Below are positions 3,739-63,777 of a DNA stretch of 64,000 nt, one piece after another. A program made the translations under genes and the position numbers. The stretch spans positions 248,001-312,000 of the forward strand of contig NZ_VRUA01000003.1 of assembly GCF_008017535.1 (NCBI RefSeq), written 5' to 3'. Within the stretch, counting starts at the first letter, position 1; each line of letters begins with the position of its first letter. The DNA is from Ottowia flava. Lineage in GTDB: Bacteria > Pseudomonadota > Gammaproteobacteria > Burkholderiales > Burkholderiaceae_C. The notes beneath the pieces are model-generated. The model was given only the letters and a program-made list of their open reading frames with translations. It ran no database searches and was not told the DNA's origin.

Positions 3739-4017
3739 ATGGATTTCGCCGACCTGTTCTGGCATTTGGCCGGCTTTGCTGCCCCCGCGCTGGTGCTCGG
3801 GCCGGCGCTGGCCTTGATCAGTAAGATTTTCTGGCGAAAAACGCCTTCGGCCCTAGGGCTGCCTGCGCAGGCAGCTATCAACTTTGGAGTCTGTCTGGCC
3901 GTGTTGGTGTTCGGTCTGGTGCTGACCGGGCGCGACGGCCGTGTCGTGACCTACGGGGCGATGGTGCTGGCCGCAGCGGCCTGCCAGGCGTGGTGGCTGC
4001 GACGCGGTCGGCGCTGA
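3739..4017 (+). CDS. Small hydrophobic membrane protein
   Basis: This 92-residue protein of unknown function is divergent from hemA. It has about three hydrophobic segments: residues 8-30, 48-63 and 70-84. The C-terminus is basic (WWLRRGRR). Codon use is like that of its neighbours and the start ATG is clear, so it is probably expressed. Residues 33-48 (KTPSALGLPAQAAINF) are encoded by a copy of the interspersed repeat and form the soluble loop between the first two hydrophobic segments. The protein therefore seems to have been extended by the repeat without breaking the frame. No named family was recognised. Confidence 0.6.
   Translation: MDFADLFWHLAGFAAPALVLGPALALISKIFWRKTPSALGLPAQAAINFGVCLAVLVFGLVLTGRDGRVVTYGAMVLAAAACQAWWLRRGRR
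3837..3880 (-). repeat. Interspersed repeat, copy 1 (in frame in a gene)
   Basis: Read on the minus strand it runs GATAGCTGCCTGCGCAG, then GCAGCCCTAGGGCC and GAAGGCGTTTTT, close to the window consensus. The middle is a perfect 18-bp palindrome (GCTGCCTGCGCAGGCAGC). It lies wholly inside the 92-residue membrane protein gene, in frame. Confidence 0.75.
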
Positions 4018-4116
4018 CCTGGCGCTTCCGCCGCCAACTGAGCGAGCCACGCTGCAAGGCCAGCGACCGTCGCGCGGCGGCTGGTCTGTCCCAGCCTTCC
4101 TGCTCGCCGGTCGCTC

Positions 4117-4869
4117 TCAGCCCGGCGCGAACAGGTCGACCCGGTCCGTGACGATGCCGTCCGTGCCCAGCGCGATCAGGCGCTGGGCGGCCCATTCGTC
4201 GTTCACCGTGTAACTCAGCGCGCGCCACCCGACGGCGTGCACGCGGTCGACCAGCGCGGCGTCCCACAGCGCGTGGTTGCAGACGATGGCACGGCAACCC
4301 AGCTGTGTGGCGACGCCCTGCCAGCCGTCCCACAGCGTGTCCAGCAGCAGCCCACGCGGCAGCTGCGGCGCGGCCTGGGCGGCCGCCTGCAGGGCGTCGG
4401 GCCGGAAAGATGTGAGCAAGGGCGGCACCGCGGCCCCTCGCCACCAGCGCGCCGCGGCCCCGGCCACGGCGCGGCCGGTTGCGGCTTCTTGGCCGGGCGT
4501 GGGCTTGATCTCGACGTCCAGGTGCAGTCTGTTGGCGATGCACCAGCGCGCGAGGTTGGCGAAGCTGGGGATCGGCTCGCCGGCGCAGGCGCGCGAATGC
4601 CAGCTGCCCGCGTCCAGCTGGGCCAGTTCTGCCCAGGGCTGGTCGCCGGCGGTGCCGTGGCCGTTGGTCGTGCGCTCCAGCGTGCTGTCGTGCAGCAAAA
4701 AGGGCACGCCGTCGGCCGACAGCTTCACGTCGCATTCGGCCATGCGGTAACCGTGCTGCGCGCCCAGGCGAAAGGCGGCCAAGGTGTTTTCAGGCGCCAG
4801 CTTGCCGGCGCCGCGGTGGGCAATCCAGAACGGGTAGGGCCAGTCGGGCAGCGCGGGCATCATGGGCAA
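4117..4869 (-). CDS. ugpQ: Glycerophosphodiester phosphodiesterase
   Basis: Hydrolyses glycerophosphodiesters to glycerol-3-phosphate and an alcohol; the cytoplasmic GDPD fold. Catalytic and metal residues are visible: HRG at 18-20, the PENT motif at 25-28, E45 and D47 in AECDVKL, and H60 in LLHDSTLERTTNG. The length of 250 residues is typical, and there is no signal peptide, so it fits the cytoplasmic UgpQ type rather than periplasmic GlpQ. It is the last gene of the ugp block, 7 bp after the MDR oxidoreductase gene. Its product feeds the same glycerol-3-phosphate pool as the transporter. Confidence 0.9.
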   Translation of the reverse strand: MPMMPALPDWPYPFWIAHRGAGKLAPENTLAAFRLGAQHGYRMAECDVKLSADGVPFLLHDSTLERTTNGHGTAGDQPWAELAQLDAGSWHSRACAGEPIPSFANLARWCIANRLHLDVEIKPTPGQEAATGRAVAGAAARWWRGAAVPPLLTSFRPDALQAAAQAAPQLPRGLLLDTLWDGWQGVATQLGCRAIVCNHALWDAALVDRVHAVGWRALSYTVNDEWAAQRLIALGTDGIVTDRVDLFAPG

Positions 4870-4876
4870 CGCGACG

Positions 4877-5908
4877 TCAGGCGATCGCCAGCGCGATCTT
4901 GCCGAACTGCTCGCCCGATTCCAGGCGGCTCAGCGCGGCATGCACGTCATCCAGCGCATAACTTTGCTCGATCACCGGGCGCACGTCGTGGCGCTGGCAG
5001 AAGGCCAGCAGATCGTGCAGCTCCGACAGATTGCCCAGCGTCGAGCCCAGCACCTGCAGCTGGCGGATGAACAGGCGGCGCAGGTCGGCGCCGGGTTGGT
5101 CGCCGCTGGTGGCGCCGCAGGTGACCAGGCGGCCGCCGCGCACCAGCGCCTTCATGGCGGCGGGCCAGACGGCTTCGCCCACGTTTTCAAACACCACGTC
5201 CACGCCGCGCCCGCCGGTGGCGGCCAGCGCGGCCTTGGCCACGTCTTCCTGGCTGCTGTCGATCACGTGGTCGGCGCCCAGCGCGCGCGCCTGCGCCAGC
5301 TTGCCGGCGTGGCGCGAGGTGACGATGACGCGCGCGCCCAGCGCCTTGGCCAGCTGCAGCCCGGCCAGCGACACGCCGCCGCCGATGCCGAACACCAGCA
5401 CCGTCTCCCACGGCTTCAGGCGCGCCTGCGTGACCAGCATGCGCCACGCCGTCAGGTGATTCACGCCCAGGGCCGCGCCTTCGGCAAACGACCAATCATC
5501 GGGCAGCGGAACGGCGTTGCGCGCAGGCGCGCAGACGTAATCCGCAAAGGTGCCGTCGCGGTGTTCGCCCAGCAGCTGGTAGCGCGTGCACAGCACGTCG
5601 TCCCCGCGCAGGCAGAACTCGCAGCGCCCGCACGACACACCCGGGTACAGCAGCACGCGCTGGCCCGGGCGCAACGAGGGTTCATCCGCGCCCACTTCGT
5701 CGATCACGCCCGCGCCGTCCACCCCCATGGTCTGCGGAATGCTGTGGGTGATGCCGGCGCCGCTGTCGCGCATGTACAGGTCGACGCGGTTCAGCGTGGC
5801 CGCGTGCAGGCGCACGCGCACTTCGCCCGGCGCGCGCTGGGGCAAGGGGCGTTCGCCCACGGCGACGACCTCGTTGCCGCCGTGGCCGGTCAGGTACGCA
5901 GCTTTCAT
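4877..5908 (-). CDS. Zinc-containing MDR-family oxidoreductase
   Basis: A medium-chain dehydrogenase/reductase of 343 residues, related to quinone oxidoreductases. Residues C93, C96, C99 and C107 (CGRCEFCLRGDDVLC) form the structural zinc site. The Rossmann motif FGIGGGVSLAGLQLAK lies at about 164-180. The usual catalytic-zinc Cys near residue 43 is Asp here (NRVDLYMRDSG), so it may not be a zinc alcohol dehydrogenase. The start ATG 5908 (MKAAYLTG) is the family start. The longer frame reaches into a repeat copy, whose GGAGGCC may serve as a distant ribosome site. The substrate cannot be told. It sits between ugpC and ugpQ, probably cotranscribed. Confidence 0.8.
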   Translation of the reverse strand: MKAAYLTGHGGNEVVAVGERPLPQRAPGEVRVRLHAATLNRVDLYMRDSGAGITHSIPQTMGVDGAGVIDEVGADEPSLRPGQRVLLYPGVSCGRCEFCLRGDDVLCTRYQLLGEHRDGTFADYVCAPARNAVPLPDDWSFAEGAALGVNHLTAWRMLVTQARLKPWETVLVFGIGGGVSLAGLQLAKALGARVIVTSRHAGKLAQARALGADHVIDSSQEDVAKAALAATGGRGVDVVFENVGEAVWPAAMKALVRGGRLVTCGATSGDQPGADLRRLFIRQLQVLGSTLGNLSELHDLLAFCQRHDVRPVIEQSYALDDVHAALSRLESGEQFGKIALAIA

Positions 5909-5911
5909 AAG

Positions 5912-5960
5912 GAAATTGGCCTCCAAGCCTACAACCACCTGCGCAGTCAGCTATTAAATA
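5912..5960 (-). repeat. Interspersed repeat, copy 2
   Basis: The minus strand reads ATAGCTGACTGCGCAGG, then TGGTTGTAGGCTTGGAGGCC and AATTTCC, directly upstream of the MDR oxidoreductase start codon. It fills most of the gap to ugpC. Confidence 0.75.
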
Positions 5961-5988
5961 AATAGTATCTGCACGGGCGAGGCGCGTT

Positions 5989-7020: not shown

Positions 7021-7068
7021 GGCGTTGGAACGGAAATCGGTGCGAAGTAGCTTATGTGGTGGCCGGCT

Positions 7069-9154: not shown

Positions 9155-9290
9155 GACGGACGATCATAGCGGCGCGCACCGCGCTCGCGTGCGACTGCGC
9201 ATACGGGATTCACCCAGTGGCCGTGGGCGGCGCAATTCGGCGCTGCCGTACCGCTTGCGCGTCGATGGCGAAATCAGGAGACTATTGTTT

Positions 9291-9336
9291 TGATAGCTGC
9301 TTGCGCAGGTGGTTGTAGGGCAACGGGCTGCTTTTT
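9291..9336 (+). repeat. Interspersed repeat, copy 3
   Basis: The plus strand reads TGATAGCTGCTTGCGCAGG, then TGGTTGTAGGGCAACGGGCT and a T-rich end. It lies upstream of ugpA and downstream of the GNAT gene. Confidence 0.75.
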
Positions 9337-9338
9337 CT

Positions 9339-9632
9339 CTAAACCGCCTGGCGGGTGGCACGCAGGTCGGCGTATTCGGGATGGCGGTCCAGGTAACCTG
9401 CGACAAAGCGGCAGGTTGCCAGCACGCGGTGCCCGTCGGCGCGGATGTCGGCCAGCACCGCCTTGATCAGCGCGCTGCCAACGCCGCGGCCTTCGTAAGC
9501 CGGCTCGACCACGGTGTGCGGTAGCTCGACCACGCCGTCCGGCAGATCGCGGTAGGCAGCAAAGCCCAGCAACTGGCCATCTTCGTGGATCTCGTAGCGC
9601 TGCAGCGCGTTGTTTTTGGTGACTTCAGGCAT
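9339..9632 (-). CDS. Short GNAT-type N-acetyltransferase (YjdJ-like)
   Basis: A 97-residue single-domain protein. The acetyl-CoA binding motif is EGRGVGSALIKAVLADIRADG (about 48-68 with the preceding VVEPAY), followed by the RVLATCRFVAGYLDRHPEY end typical of the small YjdJ/YidJ-like GNAT group (COG2388). The start ATG 9632 has a ribosome site AGGAGA at good spacing; the open frame upstream to 9779 is rejected because it crosses a terminator. The gene lies between ugpB and ugpA in the same direction but behind the ugpB terminator. The substrate is unknown. Confidence 0.82.
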   Translation of the reverse strand: MPEVTKNNALQRYEIHEDGQLLGFAAYRDLPDGVVELPHTVVEPAYEGRGVGSALIKAVLADIRADGHRVLATCRFVAGYLDRHPEYADLRATRQAV

Positions 9633-12726: not shown

Positions 12727-15700
12727 ATGAATGCTCCGACCGCGCTGAACGCGTTGGTGTCGCAGGCCGCCGAGCCGGCACGCCTGCGCGAGATCCCCTA
12801 CAACTACACCAGTTTTTCTGACCGCGAGATCGTCCTGCGCCTGCTGGGCGAGCGCGGCTGGGCCTTGCTGAGCGATCTGCGCGGTGAACGCGCCACGGGC
12901 CGGTCGTCGCGCATGCTGTACGAGGTGCTGGGCGACATCTGGGTGGTGCGGCGCAACCCGTACCTGCAGGACGACCTGCTGGACAACCCCAAGCGCCGCG
13001 CGGCGCTGGTCGAAGCCCTGCACCACCGCCTGGCCGAGATCGAAAAGCGCCGCACGCCCGACGACGATGCTAGCCGCGACGCGCTGGTGGCCGAGCTGCT
13101 GGTGCTGGCGCGCGCCGTGGTCGACGCGTTCAACCGCTCCTTCGACAAGGTGGCCGAGCTGCGCCGGCGCACCGCGCGCGCGCTGGGCAAGCACACGCAC
13201 AAGGACAACATCAAGTTCGACGGTCTGTCGCGCGTCAGTCACGTGACCGATGCGACCGATTGGCGCGTCGAATTCCCGCTGGTGGTGCTGACGCCCGACA
13301 CCGAAGCCGAGATGGCCGGCCTGGTCAAAGGCTGTATCGACCTGGGCCTGACCATCATCCCGCGCGGCGGCGGCACCGGCTACACCGGCGGCGCGATTCC
13401 GCTGGACTGGAAGACCGCGGTCATCAACACCGAAAAGCTGATCACGATGGGCCCGGTCGAGCGCATCCGCCTGCCGGGGCTGGACGTCGACGTGCCCACC
13501 ATCCACACCGAAGCCGGCGTGGTCACCCAGCGCGTGGCCGACGCGGCCGAAGGCGCCGACCTGGTCTTTGCCTGCGACCCGACCAGCGCCGAGGCCAGTT
13601 GCATCGGCGGCAACATCGCCATGAACGCGGGCGGCAAGAAGGCCGTGCTGTGGGGCACGGCGCTGGACAACCTAGCCAGCTGGCGCATGGTCACGCCCGA
13701 TGGCGGCTGGCTGGAAGTTACCCGCATCGGTCACAACCTGGGCAAGATCCACGACGCCGAAGTCGCCAGCTTCGAGCTGCAGTACTTCGACGCCAGCGGC
13801 AAGACCTTGCAGCGCACCGAGCGGCTGGACATCCCGGGCAGCACCTTCCGCAAGGAAGGCCTGGGCAAGGACGTGACCGACAAGTTCCTGGCCGGCCTGC
13901 CGGGCGTGCAAAAAGAAGGCTGCGACGGCCTGATCACCAGTGCGCGCTGGGTGCTGCACCGCATGCCGGAGCACACGCGCACCGTGTGCCTGGAATTCTT
14001 TGGCCACGCCAAGGACGCGGTGCCCAGCATCGTCGAGATCAAGGACTTCATGTTTGCCGAGGCGGGCCGCTCTGGCGTGCTGCTGGCAGGCCTGGAGCAC
14101 CTGGACGACCGTTACCTGCGCGCCGTGGGCTACGCCACCAAGTCCAAGCGCGGTGGCCTGCCCAAGATGGTGCTGATCGGCGACATCGCCGGTGACGACG
14201 CCGACGCCGTGGCGCGCGCCACGAGCGAGGTGGTGCGCATCGCCAATTCGCGCTCGGGCGAAGGCTTCATCGCCGTGTCGGCCGACGCGCGCAAGAAGTT
14301 CTGGGCCGACCGCAAGAAGACCGCGGCCATCAGCCGCCACACCAACGCCTTCAAGATCAACGAAGACGTGGTGATCCCGCTGCCGCGCATGGCCGAATAC
14401 ACCGACGGCATCGAGCGCATCAACATCGAGCTCAGCCTGCGCAACAAGATCGAGCTGGCCGACGAGCTGGAGCTGTTCCTGACGCGGGGCAACCTGCCGA
14501 TCGGCCGCCCGGAGCAGGGCGCCGAGCCGCCATCGCCCGAACTGCTGGAAGAGCGCGTGGCGCAGGCGTTGACCGTGGTGCGCGACGTGCGCAGCCTGTG
14601 GCAAGGCTGGCTGCGCGACGTGGACACGCTGTTCCCGCAGTTGCAGGACCACAGCCTGCGCGCCAGCTGGAAGACGCAGATCCGCGAGCCGCTGGCGCAG
14701 ATCTTCACCGGCGCCGACTTCGAGCCGCTGATGAAGGCGCTGGGCGATGTGCAGCAGCGTGTGCTCAAGGGCCGCGTCTGGATCGCGCTGCACATGCACG
14801 CGGGCGACGGCAACGTGCACACCAACATCCCCGTGCACAGCGACAACTACGCCATGCTGCAGACCGCGCACGAGGCGGTGGACCGCGTGATGGCGCTGGC
14901 GCGCCGCCTGGACGGCGTGATCAGCGGCGAGCACGGCATCGGCATCACCAAACTGGAATACCTGAGCGACGCCGAGCTGGCGCCGTTCGCCGCGTACAAG
15001 CAGAAGGTGGACCCGCAAGGGCACTTCAACCGCGGCAAATTGCTGCGAAATCAGGAGCTGCCTGCGCAGTCTGGTAAAGCGCTGCGGTCCGATTTGACCA
15101 ATGCCTACACGCCCAGCTTCGGGCTGATGGGGCACGAGTCGATCATCCTGCAGCAAAGCGACATCGGCGCCATTGCCGACAGCATCAAAGACTGCCTGCG
15201 CTGCGGCAAGTGCAAGCCCGACTGCAGCACCCACGTGCCGCGCGCCAACCTGCTGTACAGCCCGCGCAACAAGATCCTGGCGACCTCGCTGCTGGTGGAG
15301 GCTTTCCTCTACGAAGAGCAGACGCGCCGCGGCGTCAGCCTCAAGCACTGGGAAGAATTTGAAGACGTGGCCGACCATTGCACCGTGTGCCACAAGTGCC
15401 TGTCGCCCTGCCCGGTGAAGATCGATTTTGGCGACGTCACCATGAACATGCGCAACCTGCTGCGCAAGATGGGCAAGAAGAGCTTCCGCCCCGGCAACGC
15501 CGCGGCCATGTTCTTCTTGAACGCGACCGACCCGCGCGTCATCAACATCGCGCGCGCCGGCATGACGGGCGTGGCCTTCAAGGCGCAGCGTGCGGCGGTC
15601 GACCTGTTCAAGGTGGCTGGCCGCCACCAGACGCAGCACCCGCCCGCCACCGTGGGCGCGCCGTCGCTGCGCGAAGAGGTGATCCACTTCGTCAACAAGA

Positions 15701-18526: not shown

Positions 18527-18594
18527 TGGCGCAGACCAACGGCCGCGGTGGCGGTAGTGGGCGCGCCCCGTAGCGTTTGTTTTCACTATAAATG

Positions 18595-18640
18595 TGATAG
18601 CTGGCGGCGCAGGTGGTTCTAGCGCTGCAGGCACTTTTCT
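18595..18640 (+). repeat. Interspersed repeat, copy 5
   Basis: The plus strand reads GATAGCTGGCGGCGCAGG, then TGGTTCTAGCGCTGCAGGC and a T-rich end. It lies between the DUF971 gene and ubiE. Confidence 0.7.
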
Positions 18641-18713
18641 TTTAAATATGGTGTGGCGCGATACTCCCAGAACGCTGGGTTTTGCTCGCGCGATGCCTTA
18701 GGATGCAGCCACC

Positions 18714-19489: not shown

Positions 19490-20467
19490 ATGAAATTGAG
19501 CAACATCGTTTCGCGCCTGTTCACGCTGCTCATGGCGGTCGTGCTCGTGGGCGCCTTCACTTTTGAGGCCGAGGCGCGTCGCCTGGGTGGCGGCAAATCC
19601 ATGGGCCGCCAGTCCAGCAACGTGACGCAGCGCCAGGCCACGCCGCCGGCCGCGCCTGGCAACCAGCAGCAGGCCGCGGGCGCTGCCGGCGCCGGCACTG
19701 CCGCTGCGGGCGCCGCTGCGCGCAAGCCCTGGGGCACCATGCTGGGCGGCATCGCCGCTGGTCTGGGCCTGGCCTGGCTGGCCAACTCGCTCGGCCTGGG
19801 TGCGGGTTTTGCCAACCTGCTGCTGATCCTGCTGCTGGGCGTGGTCGTCATGGCCGTGATCGGCGCGGTGCGCCGCTCGCGGGCGGGCGCCAACAACGGC
19901 GGTATGGCCTACCAGGGCGCCGGACGGGCCAGCCCGGCCACGCCGCCGCAGTACAACCCGACCAAGGTTGGCAACGACGCCTCGGCCCGCCCGTGGGAAT
20001 CGCAAGCCACGCATTTCTCTGGCGGCGCCAACCAGGGTTCGATCATCGGTTCGGGCCTGAGCGGTTCGCAGACCTGGGGTGTGCCGGCCGACTTCGACAT
20101 CCAGGGCTTTACCGACGCCGCCAAGCGCAACTTCATCACCCTGCAGGACGCCTGGGACCGCTCCGACATCCCGGCCCTGCGCTCGATGATGACGAACAAC
20201 ATGCTCAACGAGATCCAGGCACAGCTGAACGACCGCGAGCGTGAGGCCCCCGGCCGGGTCAACAAGACCGACGTGGTGTCGCTGGACGCGCAGCTGCTCG
20301 GCATCGAAGAGCTGGACGACGTCTACATGGCCAGCGTCGAGTTCAACGGCATGATCCGCGAGAACGACGAACCGAGCCCGAGCCCGTTCCGCGAAGTCTG
20401 GAACATGACCAAGCCGCGCGACGGCCGCGGTGGCTGGCTCGTCGCAGGGGTGCAGGCGCTGCAATAA
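19490..20467 (+). CDS. Tim44-like domain membrane protein
   Basis: A 325-residue protein with an N-terminal signal-like helix (residues 9-25, ending EAEARRLGGG), an Ala/Gln-rich linker, two hydrophobic segments at about 80-115, and a C-terminal Tim44-like domain from about 200 (AKRNFITLQDAWDRSDIPALRSMMT) to the end (REVWNMTKPRDGRGGWLVAGVQ). The start ATG 19490 has a GGAGG-like site 13 bp upstream. The gene always seems to sit with ubiE and ubiB in Burkholderiales. A role in membrane organisation of the ubiquinone complex is a guess. Confidence 0.88.
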   Translation: MKLSNIVSRLFTLLMAVVLVGAFTFEAEARRLGGGKSMGRQSSNVTQRQATPPAAPGNQQQAAGAAGAGTAAAGAAARKPWGTMLGGIAAGLGLAWLANSLGLGAGFANLLLILLLGVVVMAVIGAVRRSRAGANNGGMAYQGAGRASPATPPQYNPTKVGNDASARPWESQATHFSGGANQGSIIGSGLSGSQTWGVPADFDIQGFTDAAKRNFITLQDAWDRSDIPALRSMMTNNMLNEIQAQLNDREREAPGRVNKTDVVSLDAQLLGIEELDDVYMASVEFNGMIRENDEPSPSPFREVWNMTKPRDGRGGWLVAGVQALQ

Positions 20468-20512
20468 TCGTAGCTGCCTGCGCAGGTGGCTGTAGGGCCA
20501 TCTGCCTGTTCC
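20466..20512 (+). repeat. Interspersed repeat, copy 6
   Basis: The plus strand reads CGTAGCTGCCTGCGCAGG, then TGGCTGTAGGGCCATCTGCC. It starts at the stop codon of the Tim44-like gene and is followed at once by the terminator hairpin. Confidence 0.75.
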
Positions 20513-20525
20513 ATGCCTTTTTTCA

Positions 20526-21118: not shown

Positions 21119-22683
21119 GGCGTTTGCTGCGCGCCACCTACATCGCGTGGGTGGCCTTGCGCTATGGCCTGGACGAGCTGGTGCTGACCAGCTTCCAGCA
21201 CCCGGGGCTGCGCATGGTGGCCCGCATCGCCTCGGTCGGGCGCGACCTGTCGGCGCCGCGTGGGCAGCGCCTGCGCGAGGCGCTGGAGCGCCTGGGCCCG
21301 ATCTTCGTCAAGTTCGGCCAGGTGCTGTCGACCCGGCGCGACCTGCTGCCGCCCGACATCGCGGACGAACTGGCGCTGCTGCAGGACCGGGTGCCGCCGT
21401 TTCCGGCCGAGGTGGCCGTGGCCACCATCGAGCGCGCCTTCAAGAAGCCGATCGACCAGCTCTTCCTGAGTTTCGAGCGCGAGCCGGTGGCCAGCGCGTC
21501 GATCGCCCAGGTGCATTTCGCCACCCTGCGCGACAAGCACGAGCGCGAGCGCGAAGTGGCCGTGAAGGTGCTGCGCCCTGGCATGGCCAAGGTGATCGAC
21601 CAGGACATCGACCTGATCCGCATGATGGCGACCTGGGTCGAACGTCTGTCGGCCGACGGCAAGCGCCTGAAGCCGCGCGACGTGGTGGCCGAATTCGACA
21701 AGTACCTGCACGACGAGCTGGACCTGGTGCGCGAAGCCGCCAGCGCCGCCCAGCTGCGCCGCAACATGGCGGGGCTGGACCTGGTGCTGATCCCCGAGAT
21801 GTTCTGGGACCTGATCCGTCCCGAAGTGCTGGTGATGGAGCGCATGAAGGGCGTGCCGATCAACCAGATCGAGCGCCTGCGCGCCGCCGGTGTGGACATC
21901 CCCAAGCTGGCGCGCGACGGCGTGACCATTTTCTTCACCCAGGTGTTCCGCGACGGTTTCTTTCACGCCGACATGCACCCGGGCAACATCATGGTCAGCC
22001 TGGAGCCAGCGACCTTCGGGCGCTATGTGTCGCTGGACTTCGGCATCGTCGGCACGCTGACCGAGGTCGACAAGGAATACCTGGCGCAGAACTTCACCGC
22101 GTTCTTCCGGCGCGACTACAAGCGCGTGGCCGAACTGCACATCGAAAGCGGCTGGGTACCCCCTGATACGCGCGTGGACGAGCTGGAAGCGGCCATCCGC
22201 AGCGTGTGCGAGCCGTACTTCGACCGGCCGCTGAAGGACATCTCGCTCGGCATGGTGCTGATGCGGCTGTTCCAGACCTCGCGCCGCTTCAACGTGGTGA
22301 TCCAGCCGCAGCTGGTGCTGCTGCAGAAGACGCTGCTCAACGTCGAAGGCCTGGGCCGCCAGCTTGACCCGGACCTGGACCTGTGGCACACGGCCAAGCC
22401 GTTCCTTGAAAAATGGATGCTCGACCAGATCGGCCCCAAGCGCGTCTGGCGCGAGCTGAAGGACCAGGCGCCGTATTACGCCAAAATGCTGCCCGATCTG
22501 CCGCGCCTGCTGCACGGTTACCTGCAGCAGCGGCCGATCGACGACCTGCGGCGCGAGCTAAAGGATTTGGCCGAGCAGCAGCGGCGCACCAACTGGCTGC
22601 TGCAACGCATCATCTACGGCGGCCTGGGTTTCGTGCTGGGCCTGATCGCCATGCAGTTCGTGTTCCGCATTCGGTTGTTCTGA
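21115..22683 (+). CDS. ubiB: Ubiquinone biosynthesis kinase-like protein UbiB
   Basis: Atypical ADCK/UbiB kinase-like ATPase, 522 residues, needed for aerobic ubiquinone synthesis. The KxGQ-type motif is [15 protein letters not shown] at about 64-78. The A-rich loop SASIAQVH is at about 125-132. The catalytic-type sequence FHADMHPGN is near 283 and DFG (LDFGIVG) near 307. A membrane helix is at the C-terminus ([16 protein letters not shown]). The start ATG 21115 overlaps the ubiJ stop; a longer open frame upstream runs through ubiJ out of phase and was rejected. Confidence 0.95.
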
Positions 22684-22685
22684 TA

Positions 22686-22732
22686 AAAATCGGCCTCCAG
22701 CGCTAGATGGATCTGCGCGGGCAGCTATCAAA
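22686..22732 (-). repeat. Interspersed repeat, copy 7
   Basis: The minus strand reads TGATAGCTGCCCGCGCAG, then ATCCATCTAGCGCTGG and AGGCCGATTTT. It begins 3 bp after the ubiB stop. Confidence 0.75.
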
Positions 22733-22757
22733 AATAAAGTAACTGGCAGAGGTGAAG

Positions 22758-25506: not shown

Positions 25507-27303
<1,797 letters not shown>

Positions 27304-29877: not shown

Positions 29878-29885
29878 TGCTATTT

Positions 29886-29932
29886 AAATCGTAGCTGATT
29901 GCGCAGGTGGCTGTAGCGCCAGTGCCTTTTTT
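29886..29932 (+). repeat. Interspersed repeat, copy 8
   Basis: The plus strand reads CGTAGCTGATTGCGCAGG, then TGGCTGTAGCGCCAGTGCC and TTTTTT. It sits between the EEP gene and folE, ending about 36 bp before the folE start. Confidence 0.78.
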
Positions 29933-29967
29933 GTTTGTAAACAATGCTGCTACCATCGCGGGACACC

Positions 29968-31115: not shown

Positions 31116-31157
31116 TCGGCGCCTGGGTCATCGGCGGCCGTGCCAGGCTGTGCCGCA

Positions 31158-31210
31158 TCAAATTGGCCTTTGACCCTACAGCAGTCTGCGCGACCAGCTC
31201 CTGATTTGAT
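31158..31210 (-). repeat. Interspersed repeat, copy 9
   Basis: The minus strand reads CAAATCAGGAGCTGGTCGCG, then CAGACTGCTGTAGGG and TCAAAGGCCAATTTG. It lies between the convergent BLUF and SulP genes. Confidence 0.72.
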
Positions 31211-31222
31211 AGTTGTCAGCCG

Positions 31223-33828: not shown

Positions 33829-35175
33829 TCAGCGCTGCGGCATGTCCTTGTAGGAATAGCCCAGGCTGATCGTCGCGTCGGCGGGAATCGGCGGCATGGT
33901 CGCTTCCCAGGCTTCCCAGGCGGCGCGCATGGCGGCCAGGCGGTCGGGCTCGCGCGCGGCCAGGTTGGCGCGCTCGCGCTCGTCCTGTGGGATGTTGAAC
34001 AGGTAGTCGTTGCCGTCCACGCGCAGGTATTTCCAGGGGCCGTCGCGCAGCGCGCGCTGCCCGCGGTGGTTCATGCGCCAGTGCAGCGGGCGGGCGAAGG
34101 TGTCGTCTGCGTCGCGCAGCACAGGCAGGAGGGAGACCCCGTCGAGCGGGTAATCGGCATGCGGCTGGCCACCAGCGGCGTCCAGCATAGTGGCGGACCA
34201 GTCCATGCTCATGCAGACCTGCTCAGTCACGCCGCCGGGCGGGATAACGGCCGGCCAGTGGGCGATCCACGGCACGCGGATGCCGCCTTCGGTCAGGTCC
34301 ATCTTGCCGCCGACCAGCGGCCAGTTGTCGGAAAAGCGCTCGCCGCCGTTGTCGCTGGTGAAGACGATCAGGGTGTCGTCCAGCAGGCCATTCGCTTCCA
34401 GCGCTTCCACCATCTGGCCAATGCCTTCGTCCATGTGGTGGATCATGCGGTGGTAGGTGTGGATGTTGCCGCCGTGCAGGTGGAACAGGTTGTTCTTGAC
34501 CTCCTCGGCCAGCGCGGCGTCGTCGCGCGTTTCCCACGGCCAGTGCGGCGCGGTGTAGTGCACGCTCAGAAAAAACGGCGTGCCGGCTTGCGCGCCGGGG
34601 GCCATGCGCTGGATGTAGTCGACCGAGCGCTGGCTGATCAGGTCGGTGAGGTAGCCCTCTTCGTGGTGCTCGCCATCGCCCAGGTACAGGTCGTGCGTGC
34701 CGTTGTTGCTGCAGTGGGTGAAGTAGTCCACGCCCCCCGAGATCGGGCCGAAGAACTCCTCGTAGCCCGATTTGAGCGGCCCGAACACGGGCGGGTAGCC
34801 CAAGTGCCATTTGCCCATCAGCGCCGTGCGGTAGCCCGCGTCTTTCAGCAGCGAAGGCAGCGTGGGGTGCTCGGGCGGCAGGCCCAGCGTGGTGCTGCCC
34901 TTGCTCTTGCTGTTGATCGGCTCTTCGGCCGCGCCGCGCAGGCGGTACTGGTAGCGCATGGTGATCAACCCGAACCGCGTGGGCGAGCACACGGGCGAAT
35001 TGCTGTAGCCCTGCGTCATGCGCAAGCCCTTGGCGGCCAGCCGGTCGAGCACGGGCGAAACGGGACCGAAGCGCGCATCGCGGCCGCCGTAGCAGCCAAG
35101 GTCGGCAAAGCCCAGGTCGTCGGCGACGATGTAGATGATGTTCGGTCGTTTGGGATTTTTAGACATTTTTGGCAT
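33829..35175 (-). CDS. Type I sulfatase (formylglycine-type)
   Basis: A 448-residue alkaline-phosphatase-superfamily hydrolase of sulfate esters. The signature CSPTR begins at Cys63 (NSPVCSPTRFG), the Cys normally converted to formylglycine. Metal ligands are D19 D20 (VADDLGFADLG), and D/N in TSDNGGERFS. No signal peptide is seen, so it appears cytoplasmic. No sulfatase-maturation enzyme is encoded in the window. The start codon ATG 35175 lies inside a repeat copy; a second ATG at 35166 is possible. It follows two Bug receptor genes on the same strand, suggesting use of a sulfated organic compound. Confidence 0.88.
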   Translation of the reverse strand: MPKMSKNPKRPNIIYIVADDLGFADLGCYGGRDARFGPVSPVLDRLAAKGLRMTQGYSNSPVCSPTRFGLITMRYQYRLRGAAEEPINSKSKGSTTLGLPPEHPTLPSLLKDAGYRTALMGKWHLGYPPVFGPLKSGYEEFFGPISGGVDYFTHCSNNGTHDLYLGDGEHHEEGYLTDLISQRSVDYIQRMAPGAQAGTPFFLSVHYTAPHWPWETRDDAALAEEVKNNLFHLHGGNIHTYHRMIHHMDEGIGQMVEALEANGLLDDTLIVFTSDNGGERFSDNWPLVGGKMDLTEGGIRVPWIAHWPAVIPPGGVTEQVCMSMDWSATMLDAAGGQPHADYPLDGVSLLPVLRDADDTFARPLHWRMNHRGQRALRDGPWKYLRVDGNDYLFNIPQDERERANLAAREPDRLAAMRAAWEAWEATMPPIPADATISLGYSYKDMPQR

Positions 35176-35212
35176 CTAGCCCTACAGCCATCTGCGTGAG
35201 AAGCTATAAAAA
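35166..35212 (-). repeat. Interspersed repeat, copy 10
   Basis: The minus strand reads TATAGCTTCTCACGCAGA, then TGGCTGTAGGGCTAGATGCC. The sulfatase start codon is the ATG within GCTAGATGCC. Confidence 0.7.
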
Positions 35213-35226
35213 CAGGAGTAAGTGTT

Positions 35227-45323: not shown

Positions 45324-45782
45324 ATGGCTGACCAGGATCCCGTCTTCAACATCCAGCGCGTTTACCTCAAAGGCGCTTCGCTGGAGCAACCCAATTCCCC
45401 CGCCATCCTGCTCGAGCAGGAGCAGCCCGCGGTCGACATCAACCTGGGCGTGAACGCCGAGAACGTGGCCGAAGGCGTGTTTGAAGTCACCGTCACCGCC
45501 ACCGTGCAGACCAAGATCCAGGACAAGACCGTGTTCCTGGTCGAATGCCAGCAAGCCGGCATCTTCGAGATCCGCAACATCCCCGAAGACCAGATGGGCG
45601 GCATCATCGGCGTGGCCTGCCCGCAGATCGTCTACCCCTACCTGCGCGGCAACGTGGCCGATTTGATCCAGCGCGGCGGTTTCCCGCCCGTGCATCTGGC
45701 CGAAATCAACTTCCAGGCCATGTACCAGCAGCAGCAGGAAGCCGCGGCGCAAGAAGGCGGCGCCGCCCAGCTGACACAATAA
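45324..45782 (+). CDS. secB: Protein-export chaperone SecB
   Basis: Tetrameric cytoplasmic chaperone for the Sec pathway, 152 residues. SecB hallmarks are [19 protein letters not shown] at about 7-25, the [10 protein letters not shown] strand, and the [32 protein letters not shown] block near 101-132. It has a short acidic/Gln-rich tail. It lies in the conserved cluster rhodanese-grxC-secB-gpsA and precedes gpsA by 49 bp, all of it occupied by a repeat copy. Confidence 0.95.
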
Positions 45783-45789
45783 ATTTAAG

Positions 45790-45834
45790 CCAAATCGGCC
45801 TCTGGCCCTACGCTGATCTGCGCAGGCAGCTATG
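45790..45834 (-). repeat. Interspersed repeat, copy 11 (abuts the gpsA start)
   Basis: The minus strand reads CATAGCTGCCTGCGCAGA, then TCAGCGTAGGGCCAG and AGGCCGATTTGG. On the plus strand its end GCAGGCAGCTATGA contains the gpsA ATG. Confidence 0.8.
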
Positions 45835-46860
45835 AAAATCATAGTCATTGGCGCCGGCGCGTGGGGCACGGCAGTGGCCGTTAGCGCCGCGCGCAACCCG
45901 GCCGGCCACCAGGTCGTGCTGTGGGCGCGCGACGCCGCCCAGGCCGAAGCCATGGACAGCGCGCGCGAGAACGCGCGCTACCTGCCGGGCATCCCGCTGC
46001 CGCGCGAGCTGCAACTGCGTGGCGGCGCGCCCGATCAGGGATTGCAGGACGCCGTGCCGCAGGCCGACCTGGTCATCGTCGCCACACCGGTGGCTGGCCT
46101 GCGCGCCACCCTGGAATTGCTGCGCGGCAGCGAAGTGCCCGTCGCCTGGTTGTGCAAGGGCTTTGAAGCCGTGCGCGACACCGGCGCCGCGCACGCCTTT
46201 GGCCTGATGCCGCATGAAGTGCAGCGCCAAGCCGCGCCGCACCTGCGCTCGGGCGCCCTGAGCGGCCCCAGCTTCGCGCAGGAAGTGGCGCGCGGCCAGC
46301 CCACGGCGCTGGTCGCCGCCAGCCGCGACACCGATGTGCGCCACGCCATGGTCGAGGCGCTGCACGGCCCCACGCTGCGCGTGTATGGCAACGACGACCT
46401 GGTCGGCGTGGAAGTCGGCGGGGCCGTCAAGAACGTGCTGGCCATCGCCACCGGCCTGGCCGACGGCCTGAACCTGGGGCTGAACGCCCGCGCCGCCCTC
46501 ATCACCCGCGGCCTGGCCGAAACCGCACGCCTCGGCGTGGCCCTGGGCGCGCGGCCGGAGACGTTCACCGGCCTATCGGGCCTGGGCGATTTGGTGCTGA
46601 CGGCGACGGGCGACCTCAGCCGCAACCGCAAGGTCGGCCTGTTGCTGGCGGACGGCCTGTCGCTGGAGCAGGCGGTGCAATCGCTCGGCCACGTCGCCGA
46701 AGGCGTGTACTGCGCGCAAACCGTGTGGCAGCGCGCCCAGCACCTGGGCATCGACATGCCGATCACCGAATGCGTGGTCGGCCTGCTGGCGGGCGAACTT
46801 AAACCCGTCGAAGCCGTCGCCGCGCTGATGGGGCGCGATCCGAAAGGCGAGTTGCTCTGA
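45832..46860 (+). CDS. gpsA: NAD(P)H-dependent glycerol-3-phosphate dehydrogenase
   Basis: Makes sn-glycerol-3-phosphate from dihydroxyacetone phosphate for phospholipid synthesis. The Rossmann motif is [18 protein letters not shown] at about 5-22. Substrate residues include [21 protein letters not shown] near 143-163, the catalytic Lys in [18 protein letters not shown] near 200-217, and [13 protein letters not shown]. The length of 342 is normal. The ATG is formed at the edge of a repeat copy, whose GCAGG is the only ribosome-site-like sequence before it. Confidence 0.95.
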
Positions 46861-47778: not shown

Positions 47779-47802
47779 CGGCCAACCGAGTCTGCAAGTA
47801 AA

Positions 47803-47843
47803 AAGAGCTGCCTGCGCACGCCAGATGTGCGCAGGCAGCTCTT
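47803..47843. terminator. Convergent terminator made of an inverted pair of repeat cores
   Basis: A perfect 17-bp inverted repeat with a 7-nt loop. Each arm is AAGAGCTGCCTGCGCAC or its complement, so both arms carry the interspersed-repeat core AGCTGCCTGCGCA. The minus strand continues into TTTTT, so it ends the DUF937 gene well; the plus strand has a weaker T-tract for the lipoprotein gene. Confidence 0.8.
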
Positions 47844-47869
47844 GTCTTGGTAGCGGCTTACGCGGCCGA

Positions 47870-48385: not shown

Positions 48386-48721
48386 GGTGTTGTCCTTTCA
48401 GGCGAAAGTGGTTGCGAAACGCGGCGCATTGTGCTGCCGCCGTGCGGCGCGCGACGGGCGAGCCGGCCCAAGGCGGACTTTTGTCGCAAGTGCGTCGGCG
48501 CGCAGCGACAGTGGGTGTCGCCGGGCGGCGCGTCGCCGCTCAACCAAGGTGGCGTTCGCGCACCGGTGCCAGCGCCGGGCACGGTTGTCGATTTCAAAGG
48601 TTTTTGGGGCTCAGGCCTTACAACGATCTGCGCGGCAAGCTATCAATATCGCAGCAAAAATCGATCGGAATGCCAGGAGGCGTCACCGCGGCCCAGCGGG
48701 CCGCCACAGGCCGCGCGTCGC
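48386..48721. other. Intergenic region, no gene seen
   Basis: A 336-bp gap between the DUF937 start and the panC stop, with short out-of-frame open frames only. It holds one interspersed repeat copy at 48601-48650 and nothing else I can support. Confidence 0.6.
48601..48650 (-). repeat. Interspersed repeat, copy 12
   Basis: The minus strand reads GATAGCTTGCCGCGCAGA, then TCGTTGTAAGGCC and TGAGCCCCAAAAA. It lies downstream of panC in the gap. Confidence 0.68.
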
Positions 48722-51190: not shown

Positions 51191-51227
51191 GCGTGAAAGC
51201 TCGCCGCCGCGGCAATGGCGAATTTCA

Positions 51228-51280
51228 AGCCAAAACGGACTGAAAGCGGCTTACCGCAGGCGCGGCCAGCTATCAGGTCG
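51228..51280 (-). repeat. Interspersed repeat, copy 13 (diverged)
   Basis: The minus strand reads TGATAGCTGGCCGCGCC, then TGCGGTAAGCCGC and TTTCAGTCCGTTTTGG. It matches the consensus at both ends and is diverged inside. It starts about 40 bp after the stop of the frameshifted LuxR-type gene. Confidence 0.55.
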
Positions 51281-51318
51281 ATAGTGAATAGGGGCCCGAT
51301 CGCGCTGCCGGTGCGGGT

Positions 51319-54946: not shown

Positions 54947-55060
54947 CGTGTCTCCTATACGCATTGGGGCGCTAAGCGTTGCGGCTGAGTCTAGGCGGCA
55001 AGCGCGGTTGGCGTGGCGCGCGCAGGCGATGTCAAGGCTGTGCAGGCCGGCTTTTTAAGC

Positions 55061-55108
55061 AAAACTGGCCGCTGGCCCTACAGCAGTATGCGCAGGCGGC
55101 TTCTCAAA
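55061..55108 (-). repeat. Interspersed repeat, copy 15
   Basis: The minus strand reads AAGCCGCCTGCGCATACT, then GCTGTAGGGCCAGCGGCC and AGTTTTGC. It lies between the HPP/CBS gene and panB. Confidence 0.72.
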
Positions 55109-55159
55109 AGATAGCGCGGGCTACAGTGAGTCGATGTTGTCACGGTGCCCCTGCGGGCC

Positions 55160-56293: not shown

Positions 56294-56327
56294 GTTGGAG
56301 CGCGAAGAGGCTGAGTTTTGACTAAGT

Positions 56328-56374
56328 TGATAGCTGCTTGCGCAGATTCATCAAGGGCTACAAGCCGATTTTTG
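56328..56374 (+). repeat. Interspersed repeat, copy 16
   Basis: The plus strand reads GATAGCTGCTTGCGCAGA, then TTCATCAAGGGCTACAAG and CCGATTTTTG. It lies between the HxlR gene stop and the HPP/CBS start. Confidence 0.72.
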
Positions 56375-56421
56375 CTGTAAATCGTCTGGCGTGTTTGAAC
56401 GCTTCGATCACGTGCGGCTCA

Positions 56422-58498: not shown

Positions 58499-58513
58499 GG
58501 TCGAGATGCTATG

Positions 58514-58562
58514 AAATCAGAAGCTGCTTGCGCAGGTGGCTGTAGCGCCAGAGGCCGATTTC
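58514..58562 (+). repeat. Interspersed repeat, copy 17 (closest to consensus)
   Basis: The plus strand reads AATCAGAAGCTGCTTGCG, then CAGGTGGCTGTAGCGCC and AGAGGCCGATTTC. It fills the gap between DUF3460 and scpA, ending 16 bp from the scpA start. Confidence 0.8.
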
Positions 58563-58578
58563 ATTCAAAAACCAGGTG

Positions 58579-59414: not shown

Positions 59415-59418
59415 GCGC

Positions 59419-61460: not shown

Positions 61461-61500
61461 GGAGGTGTCGTCGGGGCGAACGGCGAATGTTGATAACTAA

Positions 61501-61523
61501 ATGATCATCATATGGTAATGATC
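61501..61523. promoter_or_regulatory. AT-rich dyad upstream of the second SulP gene
   Basis: An imperfect dyad (ATGAT / ATCAT half-sites around CATATG, ending AATGATC) lies 40-63 bp before the SulP start, in an otherwise GC-rich region. It could be an operator or part of a promoter. No regulator gene is adjacent. Confidence 0.3.
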
Positions 61524-61597
61524 TGAGTTTCTGACACCCCTTGAATGTGCGGTTGTCAGTGTGCGCCTAACGCCGTCCTTTGGGGTGCCGCGCGCAA

Positions 61598-61626
61598 GAA
61601 AAAAGGGCCGATCGATGTCGGCCCTT
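61598..61626 (-). terminator. Rho-independent terminator of metG
   Basis: The minus strand has the stem AAGGGCCGAC / GATCGGCCCTT with a short loop, then TTTTTT. It lies 22 bp after the metG stop. Confidence 0.85.
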
Positions 61627-61647
61627 GCACAGTTGGTGTGGATGGAC

Positions 61648-63777
61648 TCAGCGTACGCGCATGCCGGGTTGGGCGCCAGGCGTTGGCTCCAGCACGAAGA
61701 TGCAGGGGTTCGCCTTCTCGTCGCCGTGGCTCGCAGCCAGCACCATGCCTTCGGACACGCCGAACTTCATCTTGCGCGGCGCGAGGTTGGCCACCATCAC
61801 CGTCAGCTTGCCTTGCAGCTGCTCAGGCTGGTAGGCGCTGGCGATGCCGCTGAACACGTTGCGCAGCTTGGGGCTGCCGTCGGCGTTTTTCTCGCCCGCG
61901 TCCAGCGTCAGGCGCAGCAGCTTGGTGGAGCCCTCGACCGCCTCGCAGCGCTCGATTTTCGCGATGCGCAGGTCGATCTTGGCGAAGTCGTCGATGGGGA
62001 TGGTGTCGGCCAAGGCTTCGCCGCCCGGGGCGAAGGCCTCGGCATTTGCTTCTGCTTCGATAGCTGCCTGCGCTTGCTGGGCGCCGGCTGGAGGCTCAAA
62101 CAATGCCTCAAGCTGCTTGGCGTCCACGCGCTGCATCAGATGGCTGTATTCGCCGATCTGCGAGCCCGCGCCCAGCGGCTTGTCCACGTCGGCCATGGTT
62201 TCGGGCGGCACCATCAGGAACAGCGCCACGTCGGCCGCGAGCTTGGGCAAGATGGGCTTCAGGTAGATCGCCAGGATGCGGAAGGTCTCGATGCACGCGG
62301 TGCACACGTCGTGCAGGCGCTCGTTCTGGCCCGGCAGCTTGGCCAGCTCCCAGGGCTTGTGCAGATCGACGAAGCTGTTCACCTGGTCGGCCAGCGCCAT
62401 CACTTCGCGCACCACCTTGCCATACTCGCGCTGCTCGTACAGGGACTCGATGCCAGGGCGGGCGGCGCGCAGCTTGTTCACCAGCTCCAGCCCATCGGGG
62501 GCGATCACCGACAGGCGCCCGTCGAAGCGCTTGCTGATGAAGCCTGCCGCGCGCGAGGCGATGTTGACGAACTTGCCGATCAGGTCGGCGTTCACGCGCG
62601 CCTGGAAATCGTCGGCGTTGAAGTCGATGTCCTCGTTGCGGCCCGACAGCTTGGCCGCCAGGTAGTAGCGCAGCCATTCGGGGTTCATGCCGAGTTGCAG
62701 GTACTTCAGCGGGTCCAGGCCCGTGCCGCGGCTCTTGCTCATCTTCTCGCCGTTGTTCACGGTGAGGAAGCCGTGCACGAACACCTTGTTCGGCACCTTG
62801 CGACCGCTGAAATGCAGCATGGCCGGCCAGAACAGGGTGTGGAAGGTGATGATGTCCTTACCGATGAAGTGGTACTGCTCAGTGGCCGGGTCGGCGATGA
62901 AGGCGTCGTAGTCCATGGGCTGGCCGCTCGCGGTCTTGCCCAGGCCCTTGTCGAAGTAGTTCTTCAGGCTGGCGAGGTAGCCGACGGGTGCGTCCAGCCA
63001 GACGTAAAAGTACTTGCCCGGCTGGTCGGGGATCTCGATGCCGAAGTAGGGCGCGTCGCGGCTGATGTCCCAGTCGCCCATCTTCGGCTTGCCGTCCTCA
63101 CCCGGCGCGATCCATTCGGTGATCTTGTTCAGCACCTCGGGCTGCACGGCGCCGCTGGTGGTCCACTGGTTCAGAAATTCGATGCAGCGCGGATCGCTCA
63201 GCTTGAAGAAGAAGTGCTCGCTGGTGCGCAGCTCCGGCTTCGCGCCCGACAGGGCCGAATACGGGTTGATCAGCTCGGTGGGCGCGTACACGGCGCTGCA
63301 CACCTCGCAGTTGTCGCCGTACTGGTCCTTGGCGTGGCAGTTGGGGCACTCGCCCTTGATGAAGCGGTCGGGCAGAAACATGCCCTTTTCCGGGTCGAAG
63401 AACTGCTCGATCGTGCGCGTCTCGATCAGGCCATTGGCTTTCAGGTCCTTGTAAATGGCCTGCGCCAGCGCGGTGTTTTCGGGGCTGTGCGTGCTGTACC
63501 AGTTGTCGTGGCTGATCAAAAAGCCGTCGAGGTACTGCTTGCGGCCCGCGGCGATGTCGTCCACAAACTGCTCGGGCGTCTTGCCGGCCTTTTCGGCCGC
63601 GATCATGATCGGCGCGCCATGCGCGTCGTCCGCCCCCACGAAGTTCACCGCGTGGCCCTGCATGCGTTGAAAGCGCACCCAGATGTCGGCCTGGATGTAT
63701 TCCATGATGTGGCCGATGTGGAAGGTGCCATTAGCGTACGGCAGCGCGGTGGTGATGAAGAGTTGGCGAACAGGCAT
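61648..63777 (-). CDS. metG: Methionine--tRNA ligase
   Basis: Class I synthetase of 709 residues. The HIGH motif is [19 protein letters not shown] at about 12-30. The zinc knuckle is [17 protein letters not shown] at about 143-159, and KMSKS is at about 347 ([14 protein letters not shown]). The C-terminal EMAP/tRNA-binding OB domain starts near 598 ([16 protein letters not shown]). The start is ATG 63777 ([14 protein letters not shown]); an upstream Arg/Pro-rich frame to 63894 is rejected. Residues about 559-573 in the linker are encoded by a repeat copy. It is closed by a strong hairpin. Confidence 0.95.
62059..62100 (+). repeat. Interspersed repeat, copy 18 (in frame in metG)
   Basis: The plus strand reads GATAGCTGCCTGCGC, then TTGCTGGGCGCCGGC and TGGAGGCTCAAA. 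The first 15 nt match the repeat head exactly and the rest only partly. It lies antisense to metG and encodes [11 protein letters not shown] in the interdomain linker. Confidence 0.5.

What the first reader, a model, noticed from the sequence alone, without database searches (positions are those of the whole stretch)
3837..62100. A ~45-bp interspersed repeat family with about 18 copies in 64 kb
The same sequence recurs in both orientations about every 3.5 kb: a head GATAGCTGCCTGCGCAG, a middle GTGGCTGTAGCGCC and an end AGAGGCCGATTT. The best copies (5912, 20466, 29886, 45790, 58514) differ by a few bases. Copies are mostly single, intergenic and unpaired, so they are not transposon ends or CRISPR. 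The head contains a palindrome that is perfect over 18 bp in one copy. I know of broadly similar elements in Comamonadaceae genomes but no described function. Candidate explanations are a REP-like element spread by a transposase in trans, a recurrent regulatory RNA hairpin, or a protein binding site.
Basis: partly seen in the sequence, partly recalled or inferred. Interest (0 to 1): 0.78.

Follow-up and report, generated by a model that had tools for sequence, protein, structure and literature searches.

The report
Species-tuned hairpin repeats in Comamonadaceae
The genome carries an estimated thousand copies of a 65-base repeat, many of them at the same old places in related bacteria, yet their central bases have drifted to a version typical of each species, which suggests that some unknown protein still reads them.

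Summary
A profile finds 18 copies in the window and 126 in 464 kb of this genome (0 in a shuffle), about 1,100 genome-wide by extrapolation. The unit is about 65 bp: RCTAT-N7-ATAGCTGC..GCGC-[11-nt tip]-GCGC..GAGGCC-GATTT. Copies crowd near gene 3' ends, are rare in divergent gaps and show no orientation bias; 27 of 126 lie inside predicted genes. Two fragments are in print as unexplained motifs (Acidovorax ebreus; less surely Polaromonas naphthalenivorans); it is not the Bordetella BRE. Copies persist at old sites: 36 of 80 loci share the secB-gpsA copy. In 23 noncoding ortholog pairs the outer blocks are 73-98% identical, but the tip follows a genome-specific dialect (orthologs 31%, paralogs 50%). 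One site inside gpsA lacks a protein insertion and, in Acidovorax, concentrates rare codons. Best reading: a REP-like family, probably recognised by the REP-associated tyrosine transposase (RAYT) encoded here, kept and re-tuned in place. A DNA-uptake signal is the boldest alternative. Mechanism is inferred; RAYT linkage is weak (5 of 8 genomes without a match hold 45 or more copies).

The parts
3826..3890 (-). element copy
   Evidence: holds the 18-bp palindrome
5902..5966 (-). element copy between two co-oriented genes
9281..9345 (+). element copy
15042..15106 (+). element copy inside the 1302-aa FAD/FeS oxidoreductase gene 12727-16635; linker longer than in outgroup families
18585..18649 (+). 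element copy, same site in relatives G011, G014, G003
20458..20522 (+). element copy not found at this site in the five relatives that could be compared
22676..22740 (-). element copy, absent in G011 and G010
29879..29943 (+). element copy
31149..31213 (-). element copy
35155..35219 (-). element copy
45781..45845 (-). element copy between secB and gpsA; its head overlaps gpsA codons 1-5; same site and orientation in 36 of 80 Comamonadaceae loci
47790..47854 (-). perfect 17-bp hairpin derivative between convergent genes, terminator-like
48587..48663 (-). element copy
51217..51298 (-). weak element copy (26 bits)
55051..55115 (-). element copy
56318..56382 (+). element copy
58508..58572 (+). best-scoring window copy in the first profile
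62048..62112 (+). element copy inside metG (methionine--tRNA ligase); its tip does not follow the own-genome dialect

Best explanation
A REP-like family of about 65-bp DNA elements, old in Comamonadaceae. Shown: many copies sit at the same place in different species; between orthologous copies the outer blocks are conserved well above the flanks, while the 11-nt hairpin tip resembles the other tips of its own genome more than its ortholog. Indicated, not proven: copies spread at least partly as short insertions. Inferred: a sequence-specific DNA-binding factor still recognises the element whatever its direction relative to genes, and copies are kept and re-tuned in place to match it. The most likely factor is the single-copy REP-associated tyrosine transposase (RAYT) that this genome encodes, acting in trans on hairpins in single-stranded DNA. 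How an existing copy is re-tuned (conversion by the transposase, or selection or drive on point changes) is not shown.
For: 126 copies in 464 kb against 0 in a shuffle. Intergenic copies: 31 of 99 convergent (51 of 330 gene pairs are), 6 of 99 divergent (53 of 330 are), no orientation bias. Own genome has one RAYT equivalog. Same-site retention: 36 of 80 loci at secB-gpsA. Block identities for 23 noncoding ortholog pairs: ATAGCT 0.94, GCGC 0.98, GATTT 0.77, flanks 0.28-0.56, tip 0.31; tips of window paralogs 0.50. With equal-sized training sets the tip fits its own genome's dialect in 25 of 29 own and 26 of 29 partner copies; the rest of the element leans the same way less strongly (20 and 22 of 29). 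Hairpin register: 79% of cells pair against 36-44% when slid; covariation score reached by 1 of 500 shuffles. Copies present or absent between the same genes with intergenic gaps of 118 against 17 and 12 bp, and in-gene copies in linkers that tend to be longer than in genomes without the copy. Tip homogeneity 0.41-0.85 in 9 genomes with a Y1_Tnp match and 0.23-0.45 in 4 without (Mann-Whitney by hand, one-sided about 0.02; a fifth without, at 0.67 on 3 copies, was dropped).
Against: 5 of 8 genomes without a Y1_Tnp match hold 45 or more copies (two of the five are only 76-86% complete), and seven genomes with a match hold 0-4. Elements touch or nearly touch few of the 30 Y1_Tnp loci fetched. The 20 best-scoring copies of one relative are at most 83% identical apart from an assembly duplicate, so no recent transposition is seen. 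The own-genome dialect largely breaks the hairpin (column pair 25-39 30% paired, 27-37 19%). In the structure test two of five measures do not exceed shuffles (pairs changed on both sides 367 of 500, pair types 463 of 500), and at secB-gpsA covariation does not (106 of 500). In 6 ortholog pairs inside genes the tip is more alike between orthologs (0.52) than between paralogs (0.33 and 0.46). The gpsA interior site shows no insertion.
Confidence: 0.4

Rival explanations
1. A DNA-uptake-type signal: type IV pilus competence machinery prefers DNA carrying the element, so transformation spreads and keeps matching copies at each locus and species drift into dialects, as with DUS in Neisseriaceae.
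For: Genome-wide dialects with locus-specific flanks; all-or-almost-none distribution between named genomes although at least one site is shared across genera; the gpsA interior site without protein insertion, with rare codons in Acidovorax; orientation neutrality; natural, T4P-dependent and apparently selective transformation reported in Verminephrobacter, and same-species-only transformation in Acidovorax (PMC4212676: abstract, passages, section 21 and first part of the discussion read); both Limnohabitans genomes lack a PilO match and lack elements.
Against: 65 bp is far longer than a 9-12 bp DUS; signs of spread by insertion, which uptake bias alone does not make; ComEC, DprA and PilO are also found in element-free genomes; sampled copies of three Acidovorax species share nearly one dialect, so it does not explain their reported barrier, though the sample was picked by an Ottowia-trained model; spacing no more even than random.
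Confidence: 0.22
2. Chromosome-organisation or transcript-end sites (like BIMEs): bound by a nucleoid protein or topoisomerase, or acting as bidirectional hairpins at gene ends.
For: Median 27.5 bp to gene 3' ends, 31 of 99 intergenic copies between convergent genes, few divergent; perfect hairpin derivatives.
Against: No conserved T-run beyond ATTT; weak folding in this genome; 27 of 126 copies inside predicted genes; by inference a host function would favour a stable rather than a species-specific tip.
Confidence: 0.22
3. Inert old repeats (dead MITE or REP relics) that simply decay, with dialects reflecting separate bursts in each species.
For: Copies are diverged and no near-identical pairs were seen among the 20 best of G036 apart from an assembly duplicate.
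Against: Same-site copies carry different dialects but share locus-specific spacer (columns 1-14: 0.73 against 0.48); conserved blocks exceed flanks; seven named genomes show 0-3 recognisable copies at E<=0.01; codon choice in Acidovorax gpsA is bent to the element.
Confidence: 0.1

Closest known systems
GCTTAT(N)5AAGCG motif of Acidovorax ebreus TPSY (PMC5217627, Table 7; passages and section 13 read)
   Same: Equals the hairpin core; 114 copies, 94% intergenic, 44 convergent, 4 divergent, 59 co-oriented, generally under 50 bp from genes. 13 exact copies with spacer 5 and none with spacers 2-4 or 6-11 in 15 Acidovorax loci here.
   Different: Listed there as a potential novel motif of one genome; no full element, family, dialects, ancestry or function in the parts read.
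ATAGCT(N)22CAAAAG motif of Polaromonas naphthalenivorans CJ2 (same paper)
   Same: Both halves occur in Polaromonas copies here; 125 copies there, 101 intergenic, 34 convergent.
   Different: Spacer is 31 in all 6 Polaromonas copies with both halves found here, the four printed ones at the gpsA interior site, so identity is probable, not shown.
REP / REPIN elements with RAYT transposases
   Same: Extragenic, near gene ends, imperfect hairpin, RAYT equivalog in the genome.
   Different: Copies sit at shared sites across genera; tip follows the genome; RAYT presence and copy number only loosely linked.
DNA uptake sequences and their dialects in Neisseriaceae (PMC3630211, passages read)
   Same: Very many copies, one dialect per clade as a rule, some in genes, some as hairpins.
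   Different: Length, block structure, signs of insertion, no transformation test.
BRE, Bordetella repeat (PMC3110155, abstract, passages and section 14 read)
   Same: Interspersed repeat reported in Betaproteobacteria including Comamonadaceae, some copies inside genes.
   Different: BRE averages 69% GC in Bordetella and can form tandem arrays; this family is 53% GC, below intergenic 63%, and mostly single. BRE has 1 copy in Acidovorax sp. JS42 by that paper. The BRE sequence itself was not compared.

Membership tests
REP/REPIN | RAYT encoded in the genome | tested here: met
   one Y1_Tnp gene, NF047646 REP_Tyr_transpos over its cut-off
REP/REPIN | RAYT gene flanked by the elements | tested here: inconclusive
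   30 Y1_Tnp loci: own and G010 touched at the 3' end, G036 and G011 on both sides, a weak hit before one G038 gene, two IS200-type loci of G014 with a copy upstream, the rest none within about 150 bp; no background was computed
REP/REPIN | imperfect hairpin with unpaired bases | tested here: met
   79% of cells paired against 36-44% when slid; strong in G014 and G036, weak in own genome
REP/REPIN | recent trans-mobilised spread with near-identical copies | tested here: not met
   20 best-scoring copies of G036 at most 83% identical apart from an assembly duplicate; other genomes not tested this way
REP/REPIN | binding or cleavage by the RAYT | not testable with these tools
   needs protein biochemistry
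DNA uptake sequence (DUS/USS) | one genome-wide dialect per species | tested here: met
   for intergenic copies; not clear for 6 in-gene pairs
DNA uptake sequence (DUS/USS) | short 9-12 bp signal | tested here: not met
   conserved blocks span about 55-65 bp
DNA uptake sequence (DUS/USS) | raises transformation of the carrying DNA | not testable with these tools
   needs a transformation assay
BRE (Hot et al. 2011) | about 90 bp, 69% GC, tandem variable-number arrays | tested here: not met
   about 65 bp, 53% GC, mostly single copies
Intrinsic terminators | hairpin followed by a T-run in the gene's direction | tested here: not met
   no conserved T-run beyond ATTT, orientation 31:31; exception 47,790-47,854
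Any Rfam family | match at gathering score | tested here: not met
   none of 9 low matches in the window reaches its threshold or lies on a copy

The most novel reading that the evidence does not exclude
Comamonadaceae genomes carry a self-identifying DNA signal of about 1,000 copies per genome whose tip is rewritten in place, in intergenic and at times coding sequence, to one dialect per species by a drive such as biased DNA uptake. It would be a further uptake-signal lineage besides the DUS of Neisseriaceae and the USS of Pasteurellaceae, and one built on a long hairpin element.
Probability: 0.2. Interest if true: 0.86.

Novelty: new variant of a known kind. Interest (0 to 1): 0.64.

Why it matters
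The separation inside one 65-bp unit (outer spacer remembers the locus, the tip remembers the genome) lets inheritance and rewriting of a bacterial repeat be told apart site by site. It makes two open questions testable: whether single-copy RAYT transposases still act on old REP populations, and whether species-restricted transformation in Comamonadaceae rests on a sequence signal. It also bears on annotation: the element reaches into a start region and coding linkers and can distort codon choice.

Tried and rejected
Conserved RNA structure: RNAalifold predicts no pairs on 82 copies; the head inverted repeat shows no covariation; in the own genome alone the pairs that covary most lie within the tip; a second hairpin suggested by eye in Acidovorax tails does not beat shuffles at secB-gpsA. 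A further structure count failed on string length and was not repeated on that alignment.

CRISPR or IS ends: copies are scattered and mostly single. Replication-strand marking (Chi-like): strands roughly balanced (30-/29+, 26-/19+, 10-/8+, 3-/1+). Even spacing: not found. Plasmid carriage: one copy searched by blastn, no match in 72,556 plasmid records. Competence genes as discriminators: ComEC in 26 of 29, DprA in 28 of 29, PilO in 31 of 33 genomes, element-free ones included.

Dropped or selected rows: the general alignment used 82 of 84 listed copies (perfect hairpin at window 47,790 and one in-gene copy of G018 left out). Ortholog pairs were counted only where exactly one same-strand copy lies between reciprocal-best neighbours at most 700 bp apart, or in the orthologous gene: 29 pairs at 12 loci, 23 noncoding at 10 loci; G012, with no copies in its stretch, was left out. 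A first dialect test with unequal training sets crashed after two segments (tip 26 and 27 of 29, head 28 and 3 of 29, the latter showing the bias of unequal sets) and was redone with equal sizes. The secB-gpsA alignment holds 34 of the 36 loci with a hit, one chosen by eye (L117), the window and three relatives. In the in-gene dialect count 121 of 126 own copies could be placed (24 in genes, 97 not). The own-genome sample was taken on contigs rich in BLAST hits; the window alone gives a similar density.

Full report
OBSERVATION. The repeat is real. The head pattern alone has 14 matches against 0.48 expected. A profile built from 15 window copies and iterated over 464 kb of the same genome finds 126 copies at E<1e-3 and none in a dinucleotide shuffle; 18 lie in the window. 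Extrapolated to 4.12 Mb this is about 1,100 copies. A BLAST search of the whole genome matched all 40 candidates it scored and a covariance-model search all 150; both are caps. No Rfam family matches a copy.

ANATOMY. On 126 copies the conserved blocks are RCTAT, an A+T-rich 7-nt spacer, ATAGCTGC, GCGC, an 11-nt tip, G(G/C)GC, a GGCC block and GATTT, then a looser AAA; 82 copies from seven genomes align over 65 columns without gaps. The centre is an imperfect hairpin: 79% of cells pair against 36-44% when slid, with a covariation score reached by 1 of 500 shuffles, mainly columns 28-36; two of the five measures do not exceed shuffles (367 and 463 of 500), and related sequences can inflate the rest. 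RNAalifold predicts nothing, the head inverted repeat is not supported, and folding strength depends on the genome: mean z -2.9 in G014, -2.1 in G036, -0.6 here on 40 copies. Mean GC of own copies is 53%, below intergenic 63%.

POSITION. Of 126 copies, 99 are intergenic: 62 between co-oriented genes (31 in the genes' direction, 31 against), 31 convergent, 6 divergent, where all 330 gene pairs are 226, 51 and 53; median distance to a gene 3' end is 27.5 bp; 27 lie inside predicted genes (gene calls are by my own codon-bias script). Strands are roughly balanced in each stretch.

ORGANISM AND SPREAD. The genus appears to be Ottowia: Ottowia thiooxydans, reached through a named locus (G044), has the same size, match count and candidate count as G012, which is listed as same genus. 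Of 29 genomes of the genus 22 have matches, 7 none, some of them incomplete. In 120 genomes drawn across the order 3 match: this one, one of the same family, and a single hit elsewhere (stricter filters).

OLD SITES. The copy between secB and gpsA (gene names) occupies the same place and orientation in 36 of 80 Comamonadaceae loci at E<=0.01, among them Acidovorax, Simplicispira, Comamonas, Extensimonas and Rhodoferax. In the window many copies recur between the same genes in relatives 86-93% identical in one protein, while the copy at 20,458 was not found in the five relatives that could be compared and the copy at 22,676 is absent in two, where the gap between the genes is 17 and 12 bp against 118 here.

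DIALECTS. Each genome has its own tip: here AGRTGGnTGTA followed by GGGC; in G014 TTGnnnnnCAA; in G011 (T/A)GGnnnnnCC(T/A). For 23 noncoding ortholog pairs identity is 0.94 for ATAGCT, 0.98 for GCGC, 0.73-0.77 for GGCC, RCTAT and GATTT, 0.28-0.56 in flanks, and only 0.31 in the tip, whereas tips of different window loci are 0.50 identical. Columns 1-14 behave the opposite way: orthologs 0.73, unrelated copies 0.48. With equal training sets the tip fits its own genome in 25 of 29 own and 26 of 29 partner copies; the rest of the element leans the same way more weakly, 20 and 22 of 29. So locus identity is kept outside and genome identity inside. Copies inside genes are less clear: 71% of 24 against 82% of 97 intergenic ones prefer the own dialect over the pooled others, but in 6 in-gene ortholog pairs the tip is more alike between orthologs (0.52) than between paralogs (0.33 and 0.46), and the metG copy does not follow the own dialect. 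By eye the 5-nt loop is not uniform; the dialect lies mainly in the bases next to it, which speaks for recognition rather than copying of one master.

ORIGIN OF COPIES. Two copies inside genes of the own genome, in glnD and in a protein without family match, lie in linkers of 38-83 and 45-51 residues in the genomes with a copy at that site, against 17-45 and 30-49 in those without. The trend fits insertion, but linkers of genomes without the copy overlap in length, element-free G013 (42 residues) among them, so it is not a clean empty-site test. The FAD/FeS copy also lies in a linker longer than in outgroup families, but O. thiooxydans has a linker of the same length without the element. Three metG-like copies among the 80 loci lie in linkers longer by a median of 5.5-14 residues. 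One site is different: inside gpsA, 20 of 80 loci score as an element where the protein core (HEV..AP..AG..SGPSFA) aligns without insertion; an automatic count that includes the variable stretch before the core gave medians of -2 to +5 residues. In 16 gpsA genes (15 titled Acidovorax, L129 assigned by me) 35 of 37 ATA and all 6 TTA codons fall in the two element sites; in 14 genes of loci treated as element-poor 2 of 7 and 1 of 12 do; in 9 Polaromonas genes there is no such concentration, 1 of 9 and 2 of 6. At this site Polaromonas has Arg where Acidovorax has Gln or Cys; the Polaromonas consensus CCGT..GGGC is partly made of these same copies, so I do not press the match.

TRANS FACTOR. The genome has one Y1_Tnp gene, an NCBIfam REP-associated tyrosine transposase, with an element over its stop codon. 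Among 30 Y1_Tnp loci fetched, elements lie on both sides in G036 and G011, at the 3' end in own and G010, weakly before one G038 gene, and upstream of two IS200-type genes of G014; I computed no background. In the genus 21 of 29 genomes have a Y1_Tnp match, some IS200-type only; of the 8 without, five hold 45, 70 or at least 150 copies and three none; three of the eight are less than 90% complete. Tips are less uniform in genomes without a match, a small and phylogenetically uncorrected comparison with one 3-copy genome (0.67) dropped. Competence genes do not discriminate.

INTERPRETATION. A REP-like family recognised by RAYT explains the hairpin, the gene-end position, signs of insertion and the loose RAYT link, but not in-place re-tuning or the gpsA interior site. 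An uptake signal explains those two but not insertion. A nucleoid or termination site explains position but not dialects. I put RAYT-linked recognition first, with low confidence.

PRIOR ART. PMC5217627 lists the hairpin core in Acidovorax ebreus and, with a spacer nine bases shorter than I find, the head and tail in Polaromonas naphthalenivorans, as potential novel motifs. PMC3110155 describes BRE, which differs in GC, arrangement and counts. No paper joining dialects, ancestry and this element was found in nine searches of the open library; subscription journals are mostly not held, so absence there is not shown. What I say of REP, REPIN, BIME, DUS length and USS without a call is recalled.

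Noticed in passing
window 47790-47854: Perfect 17-bp inverted repeat built from the element's head, between convergent genes, with a T-run on the minus strand: looks like an element turned into a terminator. Similar perfect hairpins occur in relative G014.
   Followed up: partly
window 51319-51618 and 52804-53103: Two 300-bp stretches 74% identical in neighbouring same-strand genes, probably a tandem gene duplication.
   Followed up: no
window 12727-16635: 1302-aa fusion of an FAD-linked oxidase with Fe-S/CCG domains and DUF3683/DUF3400; the element lies in the linker before the Fe-S part.
   Followed up: partly
L001 1462-2160 (own genome C23:29986-30684): Single REP-associated tyrosine transposase gene of the genome, with an element over its 3' end.
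   Followed up: partly
L072, L092, L100 (relative G014): 20 Y1_Tnp matches in this genome, several with the same score: a multi-copy IS200-type family beside the old elements.
   Followed up: no
L117 2369-2427, L118, L129, L164 at secB-gpsA: In several species the element's tail can form a second A-loop hairpin (AGAGGCC-AAAAN-GGCCTCT and variants with changes on both arms); the pooled test did not exceed shuffles, but loop-length changes may hide it.
   Followed up: partly
L151 949-1031 (Paracidovorax anthurii): Genome with only 2 matches still keeps a clean hairpin at secB-gpsA, a possible exapted remnant.
   Followed up: no
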